A DNA stretch of 64,000 nt from Parafrankia sp. EUN1f (lineage in GTDB: Bacteria > Actinomycetota > Actinomycetes > Frankiales > Frankiaceae): NCBI RefSeq assembly GCF_000177675.1, contig NZ_ADGX01000016.1, positions 1-64,000 of the forward strand. Direction: 5' to 3'. Positions 35,304-49,168 of the stretch are shown here, in pieces. Every line of letters starts with the position of its first letter. Positions within the stretch are counted from its first letter, which is position 1. Below the pieces are notes generated by a model. The model worked only from the letters and a program-made list of their open reading frames with translations. It was not told the origin of the DNA and made no database searches. The position numbers were made by a program, and so were the translations under genes.

Positions 35304-35346
35304 AACGTGGGTGCTCTGTTGGCCCACGCGCACCGAGGGACGCCAG

Positions 35347-37908
35347 ATGACCGACAGCGGCGGCGGCTCGCCGACCGACAGCGACGGCTCCACAGTTCCG
35401 AGCCCACGTGAGGAAACACAGTCCGACCCGGCCGTCGTCGCCTCCGGTGTTCCGCCGGAGGACGCATCCGCCGAATCCGGCTCCAGCACGTCCACGGCGC
35501 CCGCGGTGCCGTCCGCGAGATCGGCGCCGGACGCCCCGCCCAGGCCCGTCGGGCTCGAGACCTCTGAGGCCGAGCGGCAGCTTCTTCTCGGCCATCCGCC
35601 GGCGCCGGCGCCGTCCACGGTAGTGGCAGCTGCGCTGTCCGGCGGTGGTGTCAGCAGCGGCGGTGTGGGTGGTGGCGGTGTGGGTGGGGGCGGTGGCGGT
35701 GTCGGAGGGGGAGTGGAGCCTGCTGCGGCGGTGCACCGGCCGGCTCGGAAGATCCTGTATCTCCTTGTTGGCCTCGCGGTGATCCTTTTCCTGCTCGGTG
35801 GGTTCGGCGGCCAGTTCCAGGCCAGGCTGGCGGAGGTCCAGAAGAACGACAACGCCGCGTTCCTGCCCGGGTCGGCCGAGTCGACCCGGGTGGACAAGGA
35901 GGCGGAGAGGTTCCGCTCCGAGCAGACGCTGCCCGGTTTCATCGTCTATCAGCGCGTGGGCGGGCTGACGCAGGAGGATCGCGCGAAGATCGCCGCGGAT
36001 GCGCGGGCCTTCCGGTCCATCGCGGGTGTCGACCCGAACCAGATCGCCGCGCCCCAGTTCTCGCAGGACGGCAGCGTTGCGAACGTGGCGGTGCCGCTCA
36101 TCGGCAAGAGGGGCGACGTCGAGGTTCCGGGCGATGAGCTGGTAGACGTCGAGAAGGATGTCGTCGAGCTGGCGAAGTCGGACGTGCCGGACGGCCTGAT
36201 CGTGCACAGCGCGGGCCCCGGTGGCCTTCTTGTGGCCTTCATCGAGGCGTTCGAGGGCATTGACGGTGTGCTCCTGCTGGCCGCCGGCCTGGTTGTGATC
36301 GTCATCCTTCTGGTGGTCTACCGCAGCCCGGTGCTGTGGTTCTTTCCGCTGTTCAGCGCCGTCATCGCGCTGGGGGTCTCGGTCCTGATCGTCTACCCGT
36401 TGGCCAAGCACGATGTGCTGACCCTCAACGGGCAGAGCCAGGGCATCCTCTTCGTGCTGGTCATCGGCGCCGGAACCGACTACGCGCTGCTGCTCATCAG
36501 CCGCTATCGCGAGGAACTGCACGCCTACCCCGCAAGACTGGACGCGATGATCGCGGCCTGGCGGGGCGCCGCACCCGCGATCGCTGCCTCGGCGATCACG
36601 GTCGTGCTCGGGCTGCTCTGCCTCGCGCTCGGCGAACTCAACTCGAACAAGAGCCTCGGCCCCGTCACCGCGATCGGTATCGCCTGCACCGCGCTCGTGA
36701 TGCTCACCTTCCTGCCGGTGTTCCTGGTGCTGTTCGGCCGGTGGGTCTTCTGGCCGCGGATTCCACGCGTCGACCGGCAGGCCGACCTGGCCACGCACGG
36801 TGCGTGGGCGCGGTTCGCCGCCAGGCTCGCCGGCCGGCCGCGGCTGGCCTGGGTCTCGACCGCTGTCATCCTGTTGGCCTGCGCCGGCGCGATGACGACG
36901 CTGAAGGTCGACGGCCTGTCGACGACGGACAGCTTCACCAGCGAGCCGGACGCGATCCTCGGCCAGCGGATCTATGACGCCCACTTCAGCCAGGGAGCCG
37001 GCGCACCGGCGGTGATCATCGCGAACCTGGACCGTCAGGACGAGGTCGTCGCGGCCGCGTCGAAGGTTCCGGGCGTCGCGACCGGCCCCGGCTCCGTGTG
37101 CGTCCAGGTCGACTACGCGAAGCTGGCGCGGGCGTTCGCCGCCGACAGCACGTCGATCAGGCCGGGTGCGGACGGTTGCCTGCCGCCCGCGCTGCAGGTC
37201 ACGGCCGCCGATGGCCGCATCGCCATCGATGCCGGCCTCACCCACCGCTACGACACACCCGAGGCCTTCGAGACGGTCCGGGCGCTGCGCGACGCGCTCC
37301 ACCCCATTGCAGGGGCCGATGCCCTGGTGGGTGGCGCGTCGGCGATCAACTACGACACGCAGCGGGCGTCCGCGCACGACCGGAACCTGATCATTCCCAT
37401 CGTCCTCGTGGTCATCCTGATCGTGCTCGGCGTGCTGCTGCGGGCGCTCATGGCCCCGCTGCTGCTGATCGCGACGGTGGTCCTGTCCTTCGCGGCGACG
37501 CTCGGTGTCAGCGCGGTGTTCTTCAACCACGTCTTCGGCTTCGCCGACTCCGATCCGGGTTTCCCGCTCTTCGCGTTCGTCTTCCTGGTCGCTCTCGGCA
37601 TCGACTACAACATCTTCCTGATGACCCGGGTGCGGGAGGAGACGCTCGAACACGGGACCCGTGCGGGGATCGTCCGTGGCCTGTCGGTGACCGGCGGCGT
37701 GATCACCTCGGCGGGGGTCGTGCTGGCGGCGACCTTCGCGGTCCTCGGTGTTCTCCCGCTGGTCTTCCTCGCCGAGGTGGGCTTCGCCGTGGCCTTCGGC
37801 GTCCTGCTTGACACGATCATCGTGCGTTCCGTCCTGGTACCCGCGCTCAGCCACGACATCGGAAAGAAGATCTGGTGGCCGTCCGCCCTGGCGAAGGGCG
37901 TGGACTGA
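35347..37908 (+). CDS. MMPL/RND-family transporter
   Basis: The 853-residue protein has the two-fold RND layout: a membrane segment, a large external loop, then five clustered helices, repeated. Conserved Asp-containing helices are seen as GAGTDYALLLISRYREEL and ALGIDYNIFLMTRVREE, the MMPL proton-relay motifs. It probably exports lipids, glycolipids or hydrophobic compounds using the proton gradient. ATG 35347 (GAGGGACG upstream) is preferred to an earlier in-frame start. The cytoplasmic N-terminal 130 residues are disordered and contain a Gly/Val repeat (nt 35640-35715). A 24-bp duplicated hairpin follows the stop. Confidence 0.9.
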   Translation: MTDSGGGSPTDSDGSTVPSPREETQSDPAVVASGVPPEDASAESGSSTSTAPAVPSARSAPDAPPRPVGLETSEAERQLLLGHPPAPAPSTVVAAALSGGGVSSGGVGGGGVGGGGGGVGGGVEPAAAVHRPARKILYLLVGLAVILFLLGGFGGQFQARLAEVQKNDNAAFLPGSAESTRVDKEAERFRSEQTLPGFIVYQRVGGLTQEDRAKIAADARAFRSIAGVDPNQIAAPQFSQDGSVANVAVPLIGKRGDVEVPGDELVDVEKDVVELAKSDVPDGLIVHSAGPGGLLVAFIEAFEGIDGVLLLAAGLVVIVILLVVYRSPVLWFFPLFSAVIALGVSVLIVYPLAKHDVLTLNGQSQGILFVLVIGAGTDYALLLISRYREELHAYPARLDAMIAAWRGAAPAIAASAITVVLGLLCLALGELNSNKSLGPVTAIGIACTALVMLTFLPVFLVLFGRWVFWPRIPRVDRQADLATHGAWARFAARLAGRPRLAWVSTAVILLACAGAMTTLKVDGLSTTDSFTSEPDAILGQRIYDAHFSQGAGAPAVIIANLDRQDEVVAAASKVPGVATGPGSVCVQVDYAKLARAFAADSTSIRPGADGCLPPALQVTAADGRIAIDAGLTHRYDTPEAFETVRALRDALHPIAGADALVGGASAINYDTQRASAHDRNLIIPIVLVVILIVLGVLLRALMAPLLLIATVVLSFAATLGVSAVFFNHVFGFADSDPGFPLFAFVFLVALGIDYNIFLMTRVREETLEHGTRAGIVRGLSVTGGVITSAGVVLAATFAVLGVLPLVFLAEVGFAVAFGVLLDTIIVRSVLVPALSHDIGKKIWWPSALAKGVD

Positions 37909-37921
37909 TCCGGGGCCCTGC

Positions 37922-37984
37922 CCGACTCGGCCCTGCCAGGCCGGCCGACTCGACCCTGCCAGGCCGGCCGACCCGGCCTGGCAG
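37922..37984 (+). terminator. Duplicated 24-bp unit forming a 12-bp stem after MMPL gene
   Basis: Two copies of a 24-bp unit (CTGCCAGGCCGG core, at 37932 and 37956) are followed by the complement CCGGCCTGGCAG (37973-37984). Either left arm can pair with the single right arm, giving alternative perfect 12-bp stems. It lies just past the transporter stop. Confidence 0.65.
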
Positions 37985-38023
37985 GCTGGAACGCCGCCCG
38001 GGCGACGTGCTTTGCTGGGGCGG

Positions 38024-38269
38024 ATGGACGACACGAAGATCTTCGAGCGCATCGACACCCTGGTGGCGGAGGAACACAGCCTGCGGCTGCGCCGATCCCA
38101 GGGGGACATCGACTCGGACGCCGAGCGCGACCGTCTCGTCGAGCTGGAGCAGACCCTCGACCAGTGCTGGGATCTGCTCCGCCGGCGCCGCGCGGCCCGC
38201 TCCGTCGGAGCGGACCCGGACGACACGCACGCCGGCTCCGGCAACCAGGTCGAGGGCTACCTGCAGTGA
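38024..38269 (+). CDS. DUF2630 protein
   Basis: The 81-residue helical protein matches the DUF2630 layout: IFERIDTLVAEEHSLRLR, a central RLVELEQTLDQCWDLLRRRR and the terminal VEGYLQ. It looks like a small coiled-coil hairpin and its role is unknown. ATG 38024 has a GGCGGATGG context with modest ribosome site. It is separated from the MMPL gene by a strong hairpin, so it is probably transcribed on its own. It converges with the MFS gene. Confidence 0.85.
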   Translation: MDDTKIFERIDTLVAEEHSLRLRRSQGDIDSDAERDRLVELEQTLDQCWDLLRRRRAARSVGADPDDTHAGSGNQVEGYLQ

Positions 38270-38300
38270 GGCGCAGGTAGCACGGTGAGGTGCGGGCGGC

Positions 38301-39758
38301 TCAGTTGGTCGAGGGGCGGCGCGGCCTGAGCAGTCCCGCCGTGACAGCGATGCTGACCACCATCAGGGCCGCGCCTCCGAGCCACGTCGCGTGGTAGCCG
38401 GCCGTGAGGTCGTGTGCGTTCAGCGCACCGGCGCCCGCCGCGCTCTCGGTGCGCCACGCCGCGAGCGTCGTCAGGGCGGCCAGTCCCAGCGCCCCGCCTA
38501 CCTGCAGCGTCGTGTTGCTCAGCCCGGAGGCCAGGCCGGCGTCATCCTCGGGCACTCCCGACATGGTGAGCTGCGTGAACGCCGGCAGCGCCAGGCCGCC
38601 CCCGCAGCCGAGAATGATCGCCGCCGGCAGGATGTCCAGCGCGTACGAGGCGTCGGGCGAGAGGCGTGCCAGCAGCAGGAGGCCGACAGCCAGCAGTCCC
38701 AGGCCCGGCAGCGCGACCAGCCCTGGACCGAGATGCTCGGCGAGCCAGCCGGTGAGTCCCAGCGAGAACACACCGATCGTGATCGCCACGGGCAGGAAGG
38801 CCAGGCCGGTCGCCGCCGCGCCGTAGCCGAGGACGCGCTGGAGGAAGAGCGCGAGGGTGAACTGGAACGCGAACAGCCCGCCGGTCATCAACAGCTGCGC
38901 CACGTTCCCCACGGCCAGCGGCCGGGAGGAGAACAACCGGGGTGGTAGGAGGGGCTGCCGGGTCCGCAGCTGCCGGGCCGCGAACCCGACCAGCAGCCCC
39001 AGCGAGAGGAAGCCGAGTCCGAGCGTGCAGGCGGACGTCCAGCCGGCGTCGTCGCTGCCCACGATCGTGAAGATGCCGATCATGAGGCCGCCGGTGACGA
39101 GTACGGCGCCGAGTGCGTCCGCTCCGGCGGCGAGGCCCAGGCCACGGTCCTGCGGCAGGACCCGCAGGGACAGACCGACCGCGACCAGGCCGACCGGCAC
39201 GTTCACGAAGAAGACCCAGTGCCAGGTGAGCACCTCGATCAGGAGGCCGCCGGCGAGCAGTCCGATCGAGGCTCCGGCGGCACCGACGAAGCTCGACACC
39301 CCGAGTGCCCGAGCCTGAGCCCGAGGTTCGGGGAAGGTCACCACGATCATTCCGAGGACGACCGACGAGGCGAGTGCACCCCCGACTCCCTGGATGAACC
39401 GTGCGATGAGCAGCATCTCGGGGCTTGCGGCCAGCCCGCAGAACAGCGACGCGACGGTGAACAGGGCGAGACCGCCGACGAAGACCCGCCGTCGACCGAC
39501 GAGGTCGCCGATCCGCCCGGCCAGCAGAAGCAGCCCGCCGAAGGCCACCAGGTAGGCGTTGACCACCCAGGCCAGTCCGGATTCCGAGAAGCCCAGATCG
39601 TCCTGGATGGCGGACAGTGCGACGGTGACGATGGTGCCGTCGAGGATGACCATGAGCATGGCGGCGCACAGGACGATCAGTGCGAGCCAGCGGGGTGGAC
39701 CTGGTTCGGCCGCCTCGGGGCGTGTCTGGACCGGCGCCGGGAGCATGAGCTCGGACAT
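38301..39758 (-). CDS. MFS drug transporter, DHA2 (14-helix, EmrB/QacA) family
   Basis: The 485-residue protein has 14 predicted membrane helices, motif A between helices 2 and 3 (GRIGDLVGRRRVFVGGL), and the motif C-like GSSFVGAAGAS-type region in VSSFVGAAGASIGLLAGG. The first-helix MLMVILDGTIVTVALSAI is typical of DHA2 exporters (Asp in helix 1). It probably pumps hydrophobic drugs or metabolites outward. The start at ATG 39758 gives the usual N-terminus. It diverges from a HxlR-type regulator that is the likely local repressor, with a perfect small palindrome between them. Confidence 0.9.
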   Translation of the reverse strand: MSELMLPAPVQTRPEAAEPGPPRWLALIVLCAAMLMVILDGTIVTVALSAIQDDLGFSESGLAWVVNAYLVAFGGLLLLAGRIGDLVGRRRVFVGGLALFTVASLFCGLAASPEMLLIARFIQGVGGALASSVVLGMIVVTFPEPRAQARALGVSSFVGAAGASIGLLAGGLLIEVLTWHWVFFVNVPVGLVAVGLSLRVLPQDRGLGLAAGADALGAVLVTGGLMIGIFTIVGSDDAGWTSACTLGLGFLSLGLLVGFAARQLRTRQPLLPPRLFSSRPLAVGNVAQLLMTGGLFAFQFTLALFLQRVLGYGAAATGLAFLPVAITIGVFSLGLTGWLAEHLGPGLVALPGLGLLAVGLLLLARLSPDASYALDILPAAIILGCGGGLALPAFTQLTMSGVPEDDAGLASGLSNTTLQVGGALGLAALTTLAAWRTESAAGAGALNAHDLTAGYHATWLGGAALMVVSIAVTAGLLRPRRPSTN

Positions 39759-39817
39759 GTGTGAACTCCAAAGGGGCACCTTTTGTTACAGGGCCCACTA
39801 CTTGTTGCGGGGGGAAC

Positions 39818-40300: not shown

Positions 40301-41764
40301 TCAGCCCTGCTCGGCGGCCTCCACGGCGGGTGCCGGGGGGCTCGTGACATCGGGACGTATCGGCAGGGAGACCCGGAACCGGGTGTCGCCGGGCACCGAG
40401 GTCACCGTCAGGTTGCCGTGGTGGCGGTTGACGACGATGCGCCATGAGATGTCCAGGCCCAGCCCGGTTCCCTCGCCGACCGGCTTGGTCGTGAAGAACG
40501 GCTCGAAGATCCGGTCCCGGATGTCCGCCGGGACACCCGGGCCGCTGTCCCGGATCTCGACCACCAGGTCGTCGTGGTCCGCGGCGGTGACGACGGTGAG
40601 GGTGCCCGCGCCCCCCATCGCCGCCGCGGCGTTGTCGATGAGGTTCGTCCACACCTGGTTGAGCTCGGCGGCATGGACCGGGATCTCCGGCAGCGCCCGG
40701 TCGTATTCACGCACGATCCGCACACCTGCGAGCTTCGCGCCCAGCATGGCCAACGTGCTGTCCAGCAGCTCGTGGACGTCCGCCTGCCGGTAGGGCGCCC
40801 GGTCGAGCTGGGAGTACTGCTTGGTCGCGGCGAGCAGGCCGGAGATCCGGTTCGTGGAGTCCTCGATCTCCTTCATCAGCAGCTCGCTCTCGACGGTGTA
40901 CATCAGCCAGCGGACCGCGCCCTCCAGGATCTGCGGGGGCACGGTGCCCGCGACCCGTTCCAGCCAGTCGACGTCGAAGCCGGCCTGGACGAAGGTGGGC
41001 GCCAGCTGCCAGCCGCCCGCGATGCCCTGATCGTCGAGCCAGTCCGAGATGCTGTCCTCCCGGTCGCTGGTCTCCATCGGCGTGAGCGTCGGCGCCTTGC
41101 CGACCCGTTCCGCCGCCTCCTCCTGCAGGGCGATCAGCGCTTCCAGCGCCGGGCGGTCGTACGGTCCGGCGGCGATGAGGCCCAGCTTGTGCCGCATGCC
41201 GGCGACCCGTTCGCGCAGCGACGCCGTCGCCCGCACCGCGGCGGCGGCCGGGTTGTTGAGCTCGTGGGTCAGGCCCGCCGACAGCGAGCCGAGCGCCAGG
41301 AGGCGCTCGCGCTGGCCGGTCTGCTGCTGCAGGTTCTGCAGCCCGAAGAACAGCCCTTCGAGCATGTGGACGGCCATCGGGAACCACTCGCGCATGAGCT
41401 GCGCCAGCGCAACCCCATCGAGCACGACGAAGCGTGACGGGGACGTCACTCGCATCGAGTTGGTGTACTGCTGCGGCACCCGGTCGCCCAGGTAGGCGAA
41501 CCAGGCGCCGGCGTAGACCCCGCGCTGGTCGGTGCGGGTGACCTCGACGTCGTCGTCGCCGATCCGCCGGGTGAGCACCAGCGAGCCCTCGACCAGCACG
41601 TAGAAGCAGGTGGCCGGTTCACCCTCACGGAACACCGGGCCGGGCTCGATGAGCTCGACGTGGCCGTTGCGGCAGATCCAGTCAAGCTGCTCGTCGGTGA
41701 GCTTCTCGAACAGGAACAAGGTGCGCAGCTCGTCGATGTCGCAGGGCAGCCTGCCACCCGTCAT
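40301..41764 (-). CDS. Soluble histidine kinase with N-terminal cyclic-nucleotide-binding domain
   Basis: The 487-residue protein has no membrane segment. A cNMP/CRP-like domain (about 10-135, with FREGEPATCFYVLVEGSLVL) is followed by a dimerisation/phosphoacceptor helix with H167 in LSAGLTHELNNPAAAAVRA. A central helical insert (about 185-330) leads to the ATP-binding HATPase_c domain: N-box NQVWTNLIDNAAAAM, G1 DSGPGV, F-box IFEPFFTTK, G2 GTGLGL. All kinase motifs are intact. ATG 41764 follows GGGGAGG. It lies 20 bp downstream of the receiver-flavoenzyme gene, so the two form an operon, and the kinase probably phosphorylates that receiver in response to a cyclic nucleotide or similar ligand. 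Confidence 0.9.
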   Translation of the reverse strand: MTGGRLPCDIDELRTLFLFEKLTDEQLDWICRNGHVELIEPGPVFREGEPATCFYVLVEGSLVLTRRIGDDDVEVTRTDQRGVYAGAWFAYLGDRVPQQYTNSMRVTSPSRFVVLDGVALAQLMREWFPMAVHMLEGLFFGLQNLQQQTGQRERLLALGSLSAGLTHELNNPAAAAVRATASLRERVAGMRHKLGLIAAGPYDRPALEALIALQEEAAERVGKAPTLTPMETSDREDSISDWLDDQGIAGGWQLAPTFVQAGFDVDWLERVAGTVPPQILEGAVRWLMYTVESELLMKEIEDSTNRISGLLAATKQYSQLDRAPYRQADVHELLDSTLAMLGAKLAGVRIVREYDRALPEIPVHAAELNQVWTNLIDNAAAAMGGAGTLTVVTAADHDDLVVEIRDSGPGVPADIRDRIFEPFFTTKPVGEGTGLGLDISWRIVVNRHHGNLTVTSVPGDTRFRVSLPIRPDVTSPPAPAVEAAEQG

Positions 41765-41784
41765 GTCAGCCTCCCCGTGGCCGA

Positions 41785-43524
41785 TCAGCGCCCGGCCAGA
41801 TAACGATGCACCAGCGCGACCGCCATCGCGCCCTCACCCACGGCCGACGCGACCCGTTTGACCGACTCGGCGCGCGCGTCGCCGGCCACGAACACACCCG
41901 GCAGGCTGCTCTCGAGGTGGTACGGATCCCGGTCCGGGGCCCAGCCGGCCGGACGCCGGCCGTCGACGATGAGATCCGGCCCGGCCAGCACGAACCCGTG
42001 CTCGTCGCGGGTGACGACCCCGTCGAGCCAGTCGGTGCGGGGCGCGGCACCGATGAAGACGAACAACCAGTGGGTGTCGACCTTCTCCGTCTGGCCCGTC
42101 GAACTGTCCCGCAGCACGAGGCCTTCGAGATGGTCGGTGCCGTGCGCCGACACGACCTCGGTGCAGGTCCGGACCGTGATGTTCGCGACGGCCGCGATCT
42201 GCTCGATGAGGTAGTGCGACATCGAGGCCTCAAGCCCGGAACCCCGGACGAGCATCGTGACCGACCGGGCGTGCCGGGCGAAGTACATCGCCGCCTGCCC
42301 GGCGGAGTTCGCCCCACCCACGATGTAGACGTCCTCGCCGCTGCAGCTCGGAGCCTCCGTGAGCGCCGAACCGTAGAAGACGCCCTGGCCGGTCAGGTCG
42401 CCGAGGCCCGGGGCGTTGAGCTGGCGGTAGGAGACACCGGTCGCGAGGATGACCGCGTGGGCGTCGATCCGGCCACCGTCACCGAGCACCAGCCGCCGGG
42501 CGGGGCCGGCGGTCTCCAGGGCGACCGCGTCGGCGGTGGTCAGCAGCTCCGCGCCGAACTTGAGCGCCTGGCGGCGGGCCCGGTCGGTGAGCTGCGAACC
42601 GGAGACACCGTCGGGGAACCCCAGATAGTTCTCGATCCGGGAGCTCTGCCCGGCCTGGCCGCCGGTCGCGTGCCGTTCGACGAGGAGCGTCCGCAGACCC
42701 TCGGAGGCTCCGTACACCGCCGCGCCGAGGCCCGCCGGCCCGCCGCCGACCACGATCAGGTCGTAGAAGTCGCCGGCCGGCGCCGTCGCGAGCCCGACCT
42801 GGTTCGCGAGCTCGACGTCGCTCGGGTTGACGAGCGCGGTGCCGTCGGTGGTGATCACGCACGGGATCGAGTCGGGTTCCGCACCGGCCGCGGCCAGCAG
42901 CCGCTCGCCCTCCGGCTCGTCCGCCAGGTACCAGCGGTACGGCACGTGGTTGCGGGCCAGGAAGTCACGCACCTCGTAGGAACGGGCCGACCAGCGGTGC
43001 CCGACCACCCTGGTCTCGGCGACGGGCTGACGGTCCGCCGCCCGCCAGGCCTCGAGCAGCGCGTCCAGAACCGGGTAGAGCTTCTCCTCCGGCGGATCCC
43101 AGGGCTTGAGCAGGTAATGGTCGAGATCGATGACGTTGATCGCGTCGATCGCCGCGTTGGTGTCCGCGTAGGCGGTCAGCAGGACGCGACGGGCCGCGGG
43201 GAACAGGTCCATCGCCTGCTCCAGGAACTCGATGCCGTTCATGCCCGGCATCCGGTAGTCCGCCAGGATGACGGCCACCTCGCCCCCACGCAGCTTGATC
43301 TCGCGCAGTGCCTCCAGCGCCTGGGACCCGGACTCGGCCCGCACGATCCGCCACGACCCGCCGTAACGCCGGCGCAGGTCACGGGCGACCGCCCGCGAGA
43401 CGTTCACGTCGTCGTCGACCGTCAGCAGCACAGGCCGATCCCCGCCCCGCCCGGCCGAGGCGGCATCGCCGGTGCCGGTGCCGGTGCCGGGCGCCGGATG
43501 TGCCGACGTCTCGGTGGCAGTCAC
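41785..43524 (-). CDS. Receiver domain fused to thioredoxin-reductase-like flavoprotein
   Basis: The 579-residue protein has three modules. A response-regulator receiver (about 30-155) has phospho-acceptor D89 in ILADYRMPG, acidic D37-D39, Thr in LLTAYAD and Lys in LLKPW. A thioredoxin/glutaredoxin-like segment follows (about 170-250). A low-molecular-weight thioredoxin-reductase-like domain (about 253-579) has FAD motif VVGGGPAGLGA, NAD(P) motif IVGGANSAGQA and FAD-closing GVFVAGDARAE. The disulfide motif CxxC expected just before the NAD(P) loop is missing; it reads APSCSGED with one Cys. The receiver therefore appears to control enzyme activity rather than DNA binding. The start is GTG. 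Confidence 0.9.
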   Translation of the reverse strand: MTATETSAHPAPGTGTGTGDAASAGRGGDRPVLLTVDDDVNVSRAVARDLRRRYGGSWRIVRAESGSQALEALREIKLRGGEVAVILADYRMPGMNGIEFLEQAMDLFPAARRVLLTAYADTNAAIDAINVIDLDHYLLKPWDPPEEKLYPVLDALLEAWRAADRQPVAETRVVGHRWSARSYEVRDFLARNHVPYRWYLADEPEGERLLAAAGAEPDSIPCVITTDGTALVNPSDVELANQVGLATAPAGDFYDLIVVGGGPAGLGAAVYGASEGLRTLLVERHATGGQAGQSSRIENYLGFPDGVSGSQLTDRARRQALKFGAELLTTADAVALETAGPARRLVLGDGGRIDAHAVILATGVSYRQLNAPGLGDLTGQGVFYGSALTEAPSCSGEDVYIVGGANSAGQAAMYFARHARSVTMLVRGSGLEASMSHYLIEQIAAVANITVRTCTEVVSAHGTDHLEGLVLRDSSTGQTEKVDTHWLFVFIGAAPRTDWLDGVVTRDEHGFVLAGPDLIVDGRRPAGWAPDRDPYHLESSLPGVFVAGDARAESVKRVASAVGEGAMAVALVHRYLAGR

Positions 43525-44536: not shown

Positions 44537-45139
44537 ATGCGCATCGGTGAGTTGGCACGGCTCGCCGGCACCAGTCCTCGGGCACTGCGGTACTACGAGG
44601 AACACGGGCTGCTCCCAGCCAGGCGGATGTCCAACGGCTACCGGGACTACGACGCCGCGGACCTCCGCGCGGTCGAGGAGATCAGGGCCCGGGTCGCCGA
44701 GGGCTTCGCGCTCGCCGAGACGCGCCCCTTCGTCGAATGCCTCCGGGCCGGGCACGGGAGCGGTGACGCCTGCCCGGATTCCATCGACGGCTACCGACGC
44801 CGGATCGCCGAGATCGACGACGAGGTGGCTCGCCTTCTCCAGGCGCGGGAGCGGCTCGCCGCACGACTGGAGTCGGCTCACCGCGCCGGCGGGGCACCAC
44901 CGGCTCCGATGTCCGCCGAAGCAAGCATTCCCGGCCCCTGGCGGGATTTCCGAGGTCTCGATGCCTCCGCCGAGCGGCCGGGGTGCGCGCTGTTCCCGCC
45001 TGGCGCGCAGCGCGACAACGGGCCGCCCGGTCACCCATCGGATCGGCCGGAGACCACGGGCGGCCCGCTTTGGATGGACGAGGTGCACGCGGTCATCAAC
45101 GCCCGCCGCCGCGCAGCGCCAGAAATTCGCCCTCAATAG
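44537..45139 (+). CDS. MerR-family transcriptional regulator
   Basis: The 200-residue protein starts MRIGELARLAGTSPRALRYY, continues EEHGLLPARRMSNGYRDYD, the canonical MerR DNA-binding domain, then a coiled-coil dimerisation helix (about 80-118). Two cysteines (FVECLRAG and DACPDSIDG) are placed like those of a common actinobacterial MerR clade and might bind a metal or sense redox state. ATG 44537 follows GAAGGAGA. Residues 120-200 form an atypical disordered tail that is unlikely to be conserved. A dyad promoter element lies upstream, and dispersed repeat copy 2 begins 24 bp after the stop. Confidence 0.87.
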   Translation: MRIGELARLAGTSPRALRYYEEHGLLPARRMSNGYRDYDAADLRAVEEIRARVAEGFALAETRPFVECLRAGHGSGDACPDSIDGYRRRIAEIDDEVARLLQARERLAARLESAHRAGGAPPAPMSAEASIPGPWRDFRGLDASAERPGCALFPPGAQRDNGPPGHPSDRPETTGGPLWMDEVHAVINARRRAAPEIRPQ

Positions 45140-45162
45140 GAACAAACAGGGCGCGGAGCCAT

Positions 45163-45281
45163 CTGGCAATCGGCAAGAAGTGAGGATTTCGGTTGCTACA
45201 GCAGCTAAATCCTCCACTTCTTGCTTGGAAGCAGCGGGCAGCGGGCAGCGGGCGGCGGAAGTTCGAGGCTCGGGATTCCGC
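45163..45281 (-). repeat. Dispersed hairpin repeat, copy 2 (inverted)
   Basis: This is the reverse-complement counterpart of 26392-26501. The hairpin arms are GCAAGAAGTGAGGATTT (45173-45189) and AAATCCTCCACTTCTTGC (45207-45224), with one bulged base, and the far edge carries TCGGGATTCCGC (45270-45281). A short GCGGGCA-type tandem run lies between arm and edge. No gene is encoded. Coordinates of the edges are approximate. Confidence 0.72.
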
Positions 45282-45341
45282 AACGGGCTCCATGAACGCC
45301 GAATTCCCATGACGACACCGACGCGAGGGAGTTTTCAGCTC

Positions 45342-45716
45342 ATGAACACATCTGACGTCCTGGGCCGCCCGGATCTGGTGGAGGACGACGCCGAGGCCGC
45401 GGTGCGGCACGCGGACGATGAGACGTTCGGCCAGATCGTGCTGGGTTCCCCGGTGCCCGTTCTCGTCGACTTCCACGCGGACTGGTGCCCGCCGTGCCGG
45501 CTGATGCGGCCGATCCTCGGGCAGATCGCGGCCGAGCTGGCGGGGCGCCTGCGAGTGGTCGAGGTGGATGTCGACGCCAGCCCGAAAACGGCCTTGGCCT
45601 ACGGCGTGCTGGCGATGCCGACCATGGTCGTGGTCCGGGACGGCGTCCAGATGGCGACCATGGTGGGAGCGCGCAGCCGACGGCGCCTGCTGGAGGACCT
45701 CGCCCCGCACCTGTAG
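45342..45716 (+). CDS. Thioredoxin
   Basis: The 124-residue protein contains the thioredoxin core with active site ADWCPPCRLM (WCPPC rather than the more usual WCGPC), cis-Pro in VLAMPTMVVV and buried Asp in VLVDFHADW. It reduces protein disulfides in the cytoplasm, or serves a specific partner given the altered CPPC pair. ATG 45342 is chosen because GAGGGAG precedes it; an ATG 33 bases upstream also exists. The dispersed repeat copy 2 lies just upstream. Confidence 0.88.
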   Translation: MNTSDVLGRPDLVEDDAEAAVRHADDETFGQIVLGSPVPVLVDFHADWCPPCRLMRPILGQIAAELAGRLRVVEVDVDASPKTALAYGVLAMPTMVVVRDGVQMATMVGARSRRRLLEDLAPHL

Positions 45717-45857
45717 GGCATGTGGGTTCGTGGCGACCCCGCCGGCGAGGTACCCGCGGCAGGGCGTGCCCGGGCCGCGAGGCGTGACCACCAGCAATCT
45801 GGCGCTCTCATGCAACGGTTCTGGAGCGTTGGGGCGGTGGCTCCGTAGGCTCGCGGT

Positions 45858-46568
45858 GTGAGCGAGCGCCTGTACTTCCGTCAGCTTCTGTCCGGTCGTG
45901 ACTTCGCGGTGGGGGATCCCGCCGCGACGCAGATGGTCAACTTCGTCTACCTCATCGGTGATCGGGAGACCCGCGAAGCTGTCGTCGTCGACCCGGCCTA
46001 CCGGGTCGGGGACCTGCTCGACATCCTCGCCGCCGACGACATGCGGCTGACCGGGGCGCTGGTGACGCATCACCACGCCGACCACGTGGGTGGCACGGCC
46101 TTCGGCATCGAGCTGGAGGGCATCCGTGAGCTGCTCGAACGCACCTCGGTGCCGATCCACCTGCAGCGGGACGAGGCGGAGTGGGTGCGCCGGGGGACCG
46201 GTGTGGGCCAGGCGGAGCTCGTCGAGCACTCCGACGACGACGTCGTCACCGTCGGCGCGGTCGACATCCGGCTGCTGCACACTCCGGGGCACACTCCGGG
46301 GAGCCAGTGCTTCCTGGTCGACGGGCGCCTCGTCGCGGGGGACACGCTGTTCCTCGAAGGATGCGGGCGGATGGACTTCCCCGGTGGCGACGCCGCCGCG
46401 ATGTACGACAGCCTGCGCCGGCTCGGTGCCCTGGCGGACGACGTGACCGTCTACCCGGGCCACCGGTACTCGGCGGAGTCCTCCGCCGAGCTGAGCGTCG
46501 TGCGCAAGATGAACTACGTCTTCCGGCCGACGAGTTCGAAGCAGTGGCTCGCGATGCTCGGTGCCTGA
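45858..46568 (+). CDS. MBL-fold metallo-hydrolase (glyoxalase II/persulfide dioxygenase-like)
   Basis: The 236-residue protein has the metallo-beta-lactamase metal motif HHHADHVGG, a later His in LLHTPGHTPGSQCF, Asp in VAGDTLFLEGCGRMD and a final His in VYPGHRY. The GCGRMDFPGG stretch resembles the ETHE1/persulfide-dioxygenase and hydroxyacylglutathione-hydrolase branch. It is expected to bind one or two metal ions and act on a thioester or persulfide. GTG 45858 has no strong ribosome site. The upstream thioredoxin, 141 bp away, supports a sulfur or redox role. Confidence 0.87.
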   Translation: MSERLYFRQLLSGRDFAVGDPAATQMVNFVYLIGDRETREAVVVDPAYRVGDLLDILAADDMRLTGALVTHHHADHVGGTAFGIELEGIRELLERTSVPIHLQRDEAEWVRRGTGVGQAELVEHSDDDVVTVGAVDIRLLHTPGHTPGSQCFLVDGRLVAGDTLFLEGCGRMDFPGGDAAAMYDSLRRLGALADDVTVYPGHRYSAESSAELSVVRKMNYVFRPTSSKQWLAMLGA

Positions 46569-46696
46569 CGGCCGGGGCCTGGATGCCCGATGCCTGGACG
46601 GCCCGGCCTGGACCAGTTGACGTCGCGGCTGTGAGGCCGGACCTTGGGGCTGGCGGGCGTGACGGGGCTGGTGCGGGTGACGCGGCTGTTGGGGTG

Positions 46697-47038
46697 ATGG
46701 AGATGGTGGCAGTGGGTGCTGCATCCGAGCCGGCGGCTGGGGTCGGCTCCGACGAGCTGGGTGGTCCGGGCCGGCCCTGCGTGGAGATCGAGTACTGCAC
46801 CCGCTGCCGATGGCTTCCACGCGCCGCGTGGCTGGCCCAGGAGCTGCTCACGACCTTCGAAACCGATCTCGGCTCGGTCGCGCTCGTGCCGGGTAGTGGC
46901 GGCGTGTTCACCGTCCGGCTCGATGGTGAGGTGCTGTGGGACCGGCGTGAGCAGGGCTTTCCCGAACCGTCCGCGGTCAAGCGCGCCCTGCGTGACAGGG
47001 TCGCGCCGGGGCGCCCGCTGGGGCACGTCGAGCACTGA
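46697..47038 (+). CDS. SelT/SelW/SelH-family (Rdx) protein, Cys form
   Basis: The conserved part (about 35-105) reads VEIEYCTRCRWLPRAAWLAQEL then a central GSGGVFTVRLDG and EGFPE-like REQGFPEPSAVKRALRD, the bacterial SelW-like thioredoxin fold with CxxC in place of selenocysteine. Such proteins are thought to be small thiol redox factors. The start is uncertain: ATG 46697 gives 113 residues, with alternatives at 46703 and further in. Its position next to thioredoxin and MBL-fold genes fits a thiol-redox neighbourhood. Confidence 0.8.
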   Translation: MEMVAVGAASEPAAGVGSDELGGPGRPCVEIEYCTRCRWLPRAAWLAQELLTTFETDLGSVALVPGSGGVFTVRLDGEVLWDRREQGFPEPSAVKRALRDRVAPGRPLGHVEH

Positions 47039-47130: not shown

Positions 47131-47922
47131 TCAGCGTGTTCCGAACACCTGCGTCCAGTAGTAGCGGTAGGAGCCGCCTTCGGCGTAGCCGACGCCGATG
47201 TGGGTGTAGGCGCAGTTGAGGATGTTGGCGCGGTGACCCGAGCTGCCCATCCACATCTGGATGGTGGCTGCCGGGGTTGCCGAACCGGCCGCGATGTTCT
47301 CGCCGACGTAGGTGGACGGGAAGCCGGCAGCCCGGGCCCGGTCGCCCGCCGAGGTGCCGTCGAGGCCGGAGTGGCTGAAGTAGTTGTTCGCGGCCATGTC
47401 CGCGGAGTGGGCCTGGGCCGCGGCGGACAGGCTGGCGTCGACGGCGAGCGGTCCGCATCCGGCCGCCTGCCGCTCGACGTTGGTCAGCCGGACGACCTCG
47501 TCCTGCCGGGTGCCCGCCGCCGGGGCCGGTGCCGGTGCCGTGGATGGTGCCGGGACCGGTCGCGGCGATGGGCTCGGCGGGGTCGTCGCGGGCCTGGTGG
47601 TCGTGGGCGGCGGTACCGGTGCTGGGACCTGCGCCTGGGTGGTCGCCGGCGCCGGGATCGGTCCGGCGGGGGCGGTGGATGTGGCCGGAGCCGAGGCTGT
47701 CGGTGTCGCCGCGGCCGCGGTCGTGGTTGGCGCTGTCGGTGTGGCCGGTGCAGGCCCGGCCGGCGTCGCCGTGGCGGGTGAGGCGCTCGGCGTCGCTGTG
47801 GCTGTCGTCGGCCGGCCGCCGTTGTCGGCCAGGTCGATCGGATCGGTACGGCAGGATGAGACGGCCGCGACAAGGGCGGCGGCGACTGCTGCGCTGGCGA
47901 CGGTCTTACGAACCGGGGCCAT
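47131..47922 (-). CDS. CAP-domain (SCP/PR-1) lipoprotein
   Basis: ATG 47922 with AAAGGAG gives 263 residues: a signal peptide ending in lipobox VSSC (C24), a 105-residue Pro/Thr/Ala linker, then a CAP domain (about 140-263). The CAP domain shows HSADMAANNYFSHSG, GENIAAG and GHRANILN, the residues that line its cleft. It is exported and anchored outside the membrane. Bacterial CAP proteins are of uncertain activity (binding or hydrolysis has been suggested). Longer frames upstream cross a spacer without ribosome site. Confidence 0.9.
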   Translation of the reverse strand: MAPVRKTVASAAVAAALVAAVSSCRTDPIDLADNGGRPTTATATPSASPATATPAGPAPATPTAPTTTAAAATPTASAPATSTAPAGPIPAPATTQAQVPAPVPPPTTTRPATTPPSPSPRPVPAPSTAPAPAPAAGTRQDEVVRLTNVERQAAGCGPLAVDASLSAAAQAHSADMAANNYFSHSGLDGTSAGDRARAAGFPSTYVGENIAAGSATPAATIQMWMGSSGHRANILNCAYTHIGVGYAEGGSYRYYWTQVFGTR

Positions 47923-48031
47923 TGGAGACTCCTTTGGCGATCTCCCCCCTCGCAACGCCTCGAACTGTAGCGAACCGGACAAACGCCTGCCGCGTCGGGT
48001 GGCCGCTTCCAGGCCGGGCTGGTCCGGGGTT

Positions 48032-49168
48032 CTACAGCCCGGGCTTGGTCTGGCTGTAGACCTCGACGTGCTTGCGGTCGATCGTGAGCCACACGGTCGT
48101 GCCGCGGACGAGCCGCAGCTCCGCCAGCCGCCGGGCCGGAATCTCGGCACGCACCACGGGTGCGGTGGAGATCTGCACCCGTACCTGGTCGCCCAGCTGC
48201 TCCACGGACGTCACCGGTCCGGTGAGGACCAGGACGCCTTCCGCGCGCAGGGGCTCCTCGATGTGCACACCGACATCCGACGGGCGCAGCGCGACGAGGA
48301 CCTTCCCGGCCGGCGCGTCGGAAGGCCCCAGGAGCGTGACCGGCGCTCCACTGCCACCGCCTTCGCCACCGCCACCACTGCCTGTGTCGAGGGTGACCAC
48401 GCCGCCCGAGCTGGTGCCGGGGAACAGGTTCAGCCCGGCCAGCCGTGCGACGTACGGCGTGTGCGGGCGAGTGATCACCTCGACCGGGGTGCCGCGCTGC
48501 ACCACCCGGCCGCGTTCGAGCACGGCGACGTCGTCGGCCAGGGTCAACGCGTCCACCGGGTCGTGGGTGACCAGGACGACGGGGACGTCCAGGGTGGGCA
48601 GCAGCGCCCGGATCTCGGCGCGGACCTCCAGGCGGGTGCCCGCGTCAAGCGCCGCGAGCGGTTCGTCCAGCAGGAGGAGGCCCGGGTCGGGGGCCAGTGC
48701 GCGCGCGAGCGCGACCCGTTGCGCCTGCCCGCCGGACAGCGCGTTCGGGCGCAGGTGCGCGACCTCCGTGAGGCCGAGCCGAGCGAGCCACTGCCGGGCG
48801 GCGGCGCGGGCCGCCCCCCGGCGGACCCGATGACGTACCCGCGGTCCGAACGCGACGTTGTCGATGGCGTTCAGATGCGGGAAGAGCAGATAGTCCTGGA
48901 AGACGTACCCGGTTCCGCGGTGCTCGGGCGAGACGAAGTGCCGGTTCTCGGGCTGGTCGAGGACGACTCCGTTCAGCACGATCTGCCCGGACCGCAGCGG
49001 AACGAGCCCGGCGAGGGCGCGCAGCAGGGTGCTCTTGCCGGCGCCGTTGGGACCGAGGACGGCGAGGGTGCGCCCCGGCTGGACGGCCAGCTCGGCGTCG
49101 AGGTCCAGCGTGCCCAGCTCGATGCCGATGCGGGCGACGAGGCCGGTCCCGTCGGATTTTATGATCAC
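48032..49168 (-). CDS. modC: Molybdate ABC transporter ATP-binding protein
   Basis: The 378-residue ATPase has Walker A GPNGAGKST, Q-loop in GYVFQDYLLFPHL, signature LSGGQAQRVALARAL, Walker B LLLLDEPLAALD and switch VTHDP. A C-terminal MOP/TOBE-like domain (about 300-370) carries LRPSDVGVHIEEP and LVRGTTVWLTI. GTG 49168 overlaps the modB stop (GTGA), showing translational coupling. A Gly-rich linker (GSGGGGEGGGSG) precedes the C-terminal domain. With ModA and ModB it imports molybdate. Confidence 0.92.
   Translation of the reverse strand: MIIKSDGTGLVARIGIELGTLDLDAELAVQPGRTLAVLGPNGAGKSTLLRALAGLVPLRSGQIVLNGVVLDQPENRHFVSPEHRGTGYVFQDYLLFPHLNAIDNVAFGPRVRHRVRRGAARAAARQWLARLGLTEVAHLRPNALSGGQAQRVALARALAPDPGLLLLDEPLAALDAGTRLEVRAEIRALLPTLDVPVVLVTHDPVDALTLADDVAVLERGRVVQRGTPVEVITRPHTPYVARLAGLNLFPGTSSGGVVTLDTGSGGGGEGGGSGAPVTLLGPSDAPAGKVLVALRPSDVGVHIEEPLRAEGVLVLTGPVTSVEQLGDQVRVQISTAPVVRAEIPARRLAELRLVRGTTVWLTIDRKHVEVYSQTKPGL

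What the first reader, a model, noticed from the sequence alone, without database searches (positions are those of the whole stretch)
40301..43524. Soluble cNMP-kinase plus receiver-flavoenzyme: a two-component system with an enzyme output
Seen: a gene pair 20 bp apart, coding a histidine kinase with an N-terminal cyclic-nucleotide-type domain and no membrane helix, and a receiver domain (D89) fused via a thioredoxin-like segment to a thioredoxin-reductase-like flavoprotein. No DNA-binding output exists. Known: receivers usually control DNA binding. Inferred: phosphorylation may gate an oxidoreductase directly, linking a cyclic nucleotide or cytoplasmic ligand to redox status. It is the best candidate here for a signalling system of unusual design.
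Basis: partly seen in the sequence, partly recalled or inferred. Interest (0 to 1): 0.72.

Follow-up and report, generated by a model that had tools for sequence, protein, structure and literature searches.

The report
Kinase-gated, cysteine-free flavoprotein pair
A soil actinobacterium carries a two-gene signalling pair, found side by side in at least four bacterial phyla, in which a soluble sensor kinase most likely switches an enzyme directly rather than genes; the enzyme looks like thioredoxin reductase but has lost its redox cysteines, so its real chemistry is unknown.

Summary
40301-41764 (-) encodes a soluble cNMP-fold histidine kinase; 41785-43524 (-), 20 bp upstream of it, encodes receiver + glutaredoxin-like segment + thioredoxin-reductase-fold flavoprotein, with no DNA-binding domain. 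The pair is a widespread unit: adjacent in 78 of 80 actinobacterial loci, and in Deinococcus, Caballeronia and cyanobacteria. Among 44 diverse homologues, 28 of 29 with an intact receiver have a kinase close by; none of 15 with a degenerate receiver does. This supports phosphorylation as the input. The same core is fused to a cNMP domain instead of a receiver in a second gene of this genome, so it takes interchangeable inputs. Two corrections: the core has no CxxC in any of 55 homologues (CATC became SALT), so it is not a dithiol reductase; and this kinase's cNMP domain lacks the canonical phosphate-binding motif, so a cyclic-nucleotide ligand is doubtful. A zf-UBP protein is often encoded beside the core and may be its partner. 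The REC/thioredoxin-reductase combination was already mentioned in a census (PMC5847659); I found no functional study. Phosphotransfer and enzyme gating remain inferred.

The parts
40301..41764 (-). Soluble sensor histidine kinase, 487 aa: cNMP-fold domain (about 10-125), DHp helix 1 with H167, helical insert (204-274) inside the DHp, DHp helix 2 (277-320), HATPase (325-470)
   Evidence: ORF and Pfam; H-box invariant in alignment A2; AF2 model pLDDT 81.9, VIA-align Z 21.9 to ZraS 9jfj, 228 aligned, 4.7 A; no TM stretch
41785..43524 (-). Receiver / Grx-like / TrxR-fold flavoprotein, 579 aa, GTG start
   Evidence: ORF and Pfam; AF2 model pLDDT 78.4
43090..43425 (-). Receiver domain, residues 34-145 of the flavoprotein; D37, D38, D89, T117, K140
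   Evidence: Pfam Response_reg E 5e-13; residues invariant in all 30 kinase-type rows
42799..43014 (-). Grx/Trx-like segment, residues 171-242, serines in place of the CxxC
   Evidence: b-a-b-a-b-b-a order in the model; RWSARS motif; no Pfam/PDB sequence match
41788..42774 (-). TrxR-fold FAD/NAD(P) domain, residues 251-579; SALT (386-389) in place of CATC
   Evidence: Pyr_redox_2 E 3e-29; VIA-align Z 27.9 to 5mh4, 292 aligned, 2.3 A; no CxxC
41765..41784 (-). 20-nt intergenic gap with ribosome-binding site for the kinase
   Evidence: sequence

Best explanation
It is a two-component system whose output is a flavoprotein. The soluble kinase senses a cytoplasmic cue through its cNMP-fold domain (ligand unknown), autophosphorylates on H167 and passes phosphate to D89 of the receiver. 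The receiver state then changes the activity or partner binding of the attached TrxR-fold flavoprotein. That core is a cysteine-free, NAD(P)H-binding flavoenzyme that passes electrons from NAD(P)H through FAD to something other than a disulfide of its own: an external acceptor, a partner protein such as the zf-UBP protein encoded next to many copies, or oxygen. Shown here: the domains, the conserved linkage, the co-conservation of receiver residues with the kinase, the swap of receiver for a cNMP domain, and the absence of CxxC. Inferred: phosphotransfer, gating of the core, NAD(P)H oxidation and the identity of the acceptor.
For: Linkage: kinase directly downstream on the same strand in 78 of 80 loci, and on plasmids of Deinococcus, Caballeronia, Gloeothece and Nostoc C052. 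In Nostoc edaphicum a transposase and a bestrophin gene sit between the two. In a separate draw of 396 genomes, 51 of 57 kinase-type flavoprotein places have a kinase within 6 kb, and 61 of 71 kinase places lie by a flavoprotein. Receiver integrity: 28 of 29 intact versus 0 of 15 degenerate have a kinase nearby (Fisher p 7e-11, not corrected for relatedness). Up to three tandem kinases follow one flavoprotein. Input swap: own-genome paralogue L002 has cNMP_binding (E 8e-13) in place of the receiver and a core 48% identical over 415 residues. FAD and NAD(P) Rossmann motifs are conserved in 55 cores.
Against: The degenerate-receiver group is essentially one clade, so the receiver/kinase correlation may reflect one or two events rather than 15. 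Linkage does not show phosphotransfer. The HRRxxxR NADPH motif of thioredoxin reductases is replaced by VRGxxLxxSMSxYL, so NADPH use is not assured. The core could be a sensor or scaffold rather than an active enzyme. L118 has an intact receiver and no kinase within 6 kb.
Confidence: 0.7

Rival explanations
1. The flow of information is reversed: the flavoprotein senses NAD(P)H or redox state through its FAD, and the receiver with the kinase forms a feedback or memory element, or the flavoprotein controls the kinase. The core would be a sensor rather than an output enzyme.
For: No redox-active cysteines and no recognisable catalytic residue beyond cofactor binding. The cNMP-fused paralogue shows that the core occurs with sensory-type domains.
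Against: In two-component proteins the domain fused to an intact receiver is normally the output (established knowledge). No other effector gene is uniformly linked: zf-UBP is frequent but not universal, and absent next to this pair.
Confidence: 0.13
2. The pair is co-inherited as a stress unit and the receiver only controls oligomerisation or localisation of a constitutively active flavoenzyme.
For: Pseudo-receiver versions keep a conserved core without any linked kinase, so the core can be used without phosphorylation.
Against: Where a kinase is present, the complete phospho-site is invariant in 30 of 30 rows over four phyla.
Confidence: 0.1
3. It is a regulated thioredoxin or disulfide reductase, as the name 'thioredoxin-disulfide reductase' used for cNMP-fused homologues implies.
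For: Strong TrxR fold and family scores (TIGR01292 202.6 bits; Z 27.9 to 5mh4); annotation of homologues.
Against: TIGR01292 score is below its 343.45-bit cut-off. No CxxC in any of 55 cores; CATC is SALT; Grx-like cysteines absent; three homologues have no cysteine at all in the core.
Confidence: 0.05

Closest known systems
REC plus thioredoxin reductase response regulators ('Mycobacterium-like combination', PMC5847659)
   Same: Same domain combination, a receiver joined to a thioredoxin-reductase-fold flavoprotein; listed there in two Heimdallarchaeota
   Different: That paper only lists the combination. The kinase partner, the loss of all CxxC, the receiver/cNMP swap and the pseudo-receiver branch are described here. 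I could not check that those archaeal proteins are the same family.
'cyclic nucleotide-binding domain-containing thioredoxin-disulfide reductase' (RefSeq name of homologues, e.g. Deinococcus aquaticus H11)
   Same: Same Grx-like plus TrxR-fold core, about 48-51% identity; no CxxC in the cNMP-fused examples aligned here
   Different: A cNMP domain in cis instead of a receiver; no separate kinase
Thioredoxin reductase (TrxB) and AhpF
   Same: Fold, FAD and NAD(P) Rossmann motifs; AhpF also has a Trx-fold part before its TrxR part
   Different: No redox cysteines in either part; receiver added; HRRxxxR NADPH motif absent
TrxR-type ferredoxin/flavodoxin-NADP reductases (e.g. Bacillus cereus FNR1 6gar, FNR2 8c16)
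   Same: TrxR fold without CxxC that moves electrons from NADPH through flavin (literature knowledge); fold match Z about 22
   Different: Lower similarity than to TrxR; no receiver; acceptor here unknown

Membership tests
Two-component response regulator | Receiver with acidic pair, phospho-Asp, Thr/Ser and Lys | tested here: met
   D37, D38, D89, T117, K140; invariant in 30 kinase-type rows
Two-component response regulator | Accepts phosphate from a cognate kinase | not testable with these tools
   Only inferred from linkage and co-conservation
Sensor histidine kinase (HisKA type) | H-box His, N-box and G-boxes in DHp and HATPase folds | tested here: met
   H167, N-box and G-box residues invariant; HATPase_c E 3e-23; fold match to ZraS Z 21.9. 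The DHp carries a helical insert
Cyclic-nucleotide-binding (cNMP) protein | cNMP beta-roll domain | tested here: met
   PF00027 29.3 bits over cut-off 27.5; strands in the model at 34-116
Cyclic-nucleotide-binding (cNMP) protein | Phosphate-binding cassette with conserved Glu and Arg (GE...PRxAT) | tested here: not met
   Window reads YAGAWFAYLGDRVPQQYTNS; canonical only in some partners such as L116, L117, L122, L123
Thioredoxin reductase | CxxC in the NAD(P) domain | tested here: not met
   SALT at 386-389; zero CxxC in 55 cores; own-genome TrxR L003 has CATC
Thioredoxin reductase | TrxR fold with FAD and NAD(P) Rossmann motifs | tested here: met
   Z 27.9 to 5mh4; conserved GxGPAG and GGxNSAGQ
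Thioredoxin reductase | NCBI equivalog cut-off (TIGR01292) | tested here: not met
   202.6 bits against cut-off 343.45
Glutaredoxin/thioredoxin domain | CxxC or CxxS active site | tested here: not met
   RWSARS; serine or other residues in homologues
TrxR-type ferredoxin-NADP reductase | Electron transfer to ferredoxin or flavodoxin | not testable with these tools
   Needs biochemistry

The most novel reading that the evidence does not exclude
A widespread signalling module in which one cysteine-free NAD(P)H flavoprotein core is a common output for interchangeable inputs: a phosphorylated receiver fed by one to three soluble kinases, a cNMP-fold domain in cis, or a degenerate pseudo-receiver. 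It would act on or through a bacterial zf-UBP protein, giving direct, transcription-independent control of electron flow.
Probability: 0.3. Interest if true: 0.8.

Novelty: new variant of a known kind. Interest (0 to 1): 0.55.

Why it matters
Response regulators that control a redox flavoenzyme directly would link sensing to electron flow without new gene expression. The family is common (a core at E <= 1e-90 in 81 of 396 sampled genomes of this phylum) and is annotated as 'FAD-dependent oxidoreductase' or 'thioredoxin-disulfide reductase'; the second name is misleading because the redox cysteines are gone. The kinase-linked, cNMP-fused and pseudo-receiver branches together make it directly testable how one enzyme core is regulated by different inputs.

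Tried and rejected
Dithiol reductase reading: rejected because no CxxC exists in 55 cores. A conserved replacement cysteine (C394): rejected, present in only 28 of 55 rows. Cyclic-nucleotide ligand: not supported for this kinase. DNA-binding output: none found by Pfam. Sequence match of the Grx-like segment to Pfam or PDB: none; the fold-search lists were filled by the TrxR domain, so that segment was not tested by fold search. DUF2630/DHA2-MFS as a conserved partner: DUF2630 found only in Frankia relatives and one Deinococcus, so not a general partner. Literature searches on combined terms found nothing beyond PMC5847659; the library holds only open-licence papers, so absence is weak evidence. 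The first kinase alignment failed because L015 carries an in-frame stop in the matched kinase stretch.

Full report
The window lies in a Frankia/Parafrankia-like genome: the nearest genome loci are Frankia sp. EI5c (96% identity) and Parafrankia colletiae (88%).

Kinase. 487 residues: a cNMP-fold domain, a DHp helix with H167 in GLTHELNNPAAAA, a helical insert between the two DHp helices (204-274 in the model), and an HATPase domain. The model aligns with the ZraS cytoplasmic part at Z 21.9 over 228 residues, rmsd 4.7 A. No hydrophobic stretch is long enough for a membrane helix. The cassette that holds the phosphate of cyclic nucleotides is degenerate here, although some distant partner kinases (L116, L117, L122, L123) keep the canonical GE...PRxAT pattern. 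The cNMP fold is therefore read as a sensor of unknown ligand.

Flavoprotein. Receiver 34-145 with a complete phospho-site; Grx-like segment about 171-242; TrxR-fold domain 251-579. The TrxR part aligns at Z 27.9, 2.3 A over 292 residues, with Lactococcus thioredoxin reductase in its flavin-reducing conformation. The CATC redox motif of TrxR is SALT, and the Grx-like segment has RWSARS in place of CxxC. Across 55 homologues there is no CxxC in the core, no cysteine is conserved throughout, and three have no cysteine there at all. FAD and NAD(P) motifs are conserved. The HRRxxxR motif for NADPH is replaced by a conserved R-x3-L-x3-M-S-x-Y-L motif. That it is not a thioredoxin reductase follows from the sequence; that it is an active NAD(P)H flavoenzyme is inferred.

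Linkage. In 78 of 80 actinobacterial loci a kinase of this family starts directly downstream on the same strand; of the other two, one is cut by a contig end and one has it 3.9 kb away. The order also holds on plasmids of Deinococcus, Caballeronia, Gloeothece and Nostoc C052; in Nostoc edaphicum a transposase and a bestrophin gene separate the two. In 396 genomes drawn across the phylum, 51 of 57 kinase-type flavoprotein places have the kinase within 6 kb, and 61 of 71 kinase places are by such a flavoprotein; two of the six exceptions run into a contig start where the kinase would lie. Six loci have two or three tandem kinases behind a single flavoprotein.

Receiver integrity tracks the kinase. 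In 44 diverse receiver-bearing homologues (window not counted) scanned with a kinase profile, 28 of 29 with the full D/D/D/T/K set have a kinase in the fetched stretch, and 0 of 15 lacking at least one of the five residues (12 of them lacking D89) do (p). The tree of the core puts the degenerate ones in one well-supported clade, so the evidence amounts to one or a few evolutionary events, not 15. It still shows that the phospho-site is kept where the kinase is kept and decays where it is absent.

Input swap. The same genome has a second copy of the core (L002, contig C239), 48% identical over 415 residues, with a cNMP_binding domain in place of the receiver. RefSeq calls such proteins 'cyclic nucleotide-binding domain-containing thioredoxin-disulfide reductase'. 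The core thus takes a receiver, a pseudo-receiver or a cNMP domain at its N-terminus, which makes an output role for the core the simplest reading.

zf-UBP neighbour. A small zf-UBP protein is encoded in 64 of 80 loci, mostly directly behind the kinase, and also next to some cNMP-type and pseudo-receiver-type cores. In this genome it sits just upstream of the cNMP-type copy on C239, not by the pair. Genomes with a core have zf-UBP in 64 of 81 cases, against 31 of 315 without (not corrected for relatedness). In Tsukamurella a mycothiol-dependent formaldehyde dehydrogenase and a metallo-hydrolase follow. The zf-UBP protein as partner is inference.

Prior knowledge. Response regulators with enzyme outputs are a known class, and the REC/thioredoxin-reductase combination was mentioned in passing as 'Mycobacterium-like' (PMC5847659). 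I found no functional study in the library searched. The finding is therefore a variant of a known kind, uncharacterised rather than unprecedented.

Noticed in passing
window 44537-47038 (+): A redox-looking run: MerR regulator, thioredoxin (45330-45716), metallo-beta-lactamase-fold hydrolase (45858-46568) and an Rdx/SelW-family domain in the C-terminal part of 46181-47038.
   Followed up: partly
window 37748-39779: DUF2630 gene and a DHA2-like MFS transporter lie beside the pair; Deinococcus aetherius (L104) has flavoprotein, kinase, DHA2 MFS and DUF2630 in one row. DUF2630 was otherwise seen only in Frankia relatives L015 and L016.
   Followed up: partly
L151 (own genome contig C239): ClpB-like chaperone gene, zf-UBP gene (1432-1698) and the cNMP-type flavoprotein follow each other on the same strand.
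   Followed up: partly
L015 6872-8290: The kinase reading frame of Parafrankia colletiae contains a stop codon in the matched stretch, by mutation or sequencing error.
   Followed up: no
G130, G195, G227, G248: Three tandem kinases behind one receiver-flavoprotein, suggesting several inputs to one output.
   Followed up: no
L104, L106, L110: A low temperature requirement protein A (LtrA) gene recurs near the pair on Deinococcus and Nostoc plasmids.
   Followed up: no
window 35311-37908 (+) and 47131-48150 (-): MMPL-family transporter and a CAP-domain protein.
   Followed up: no
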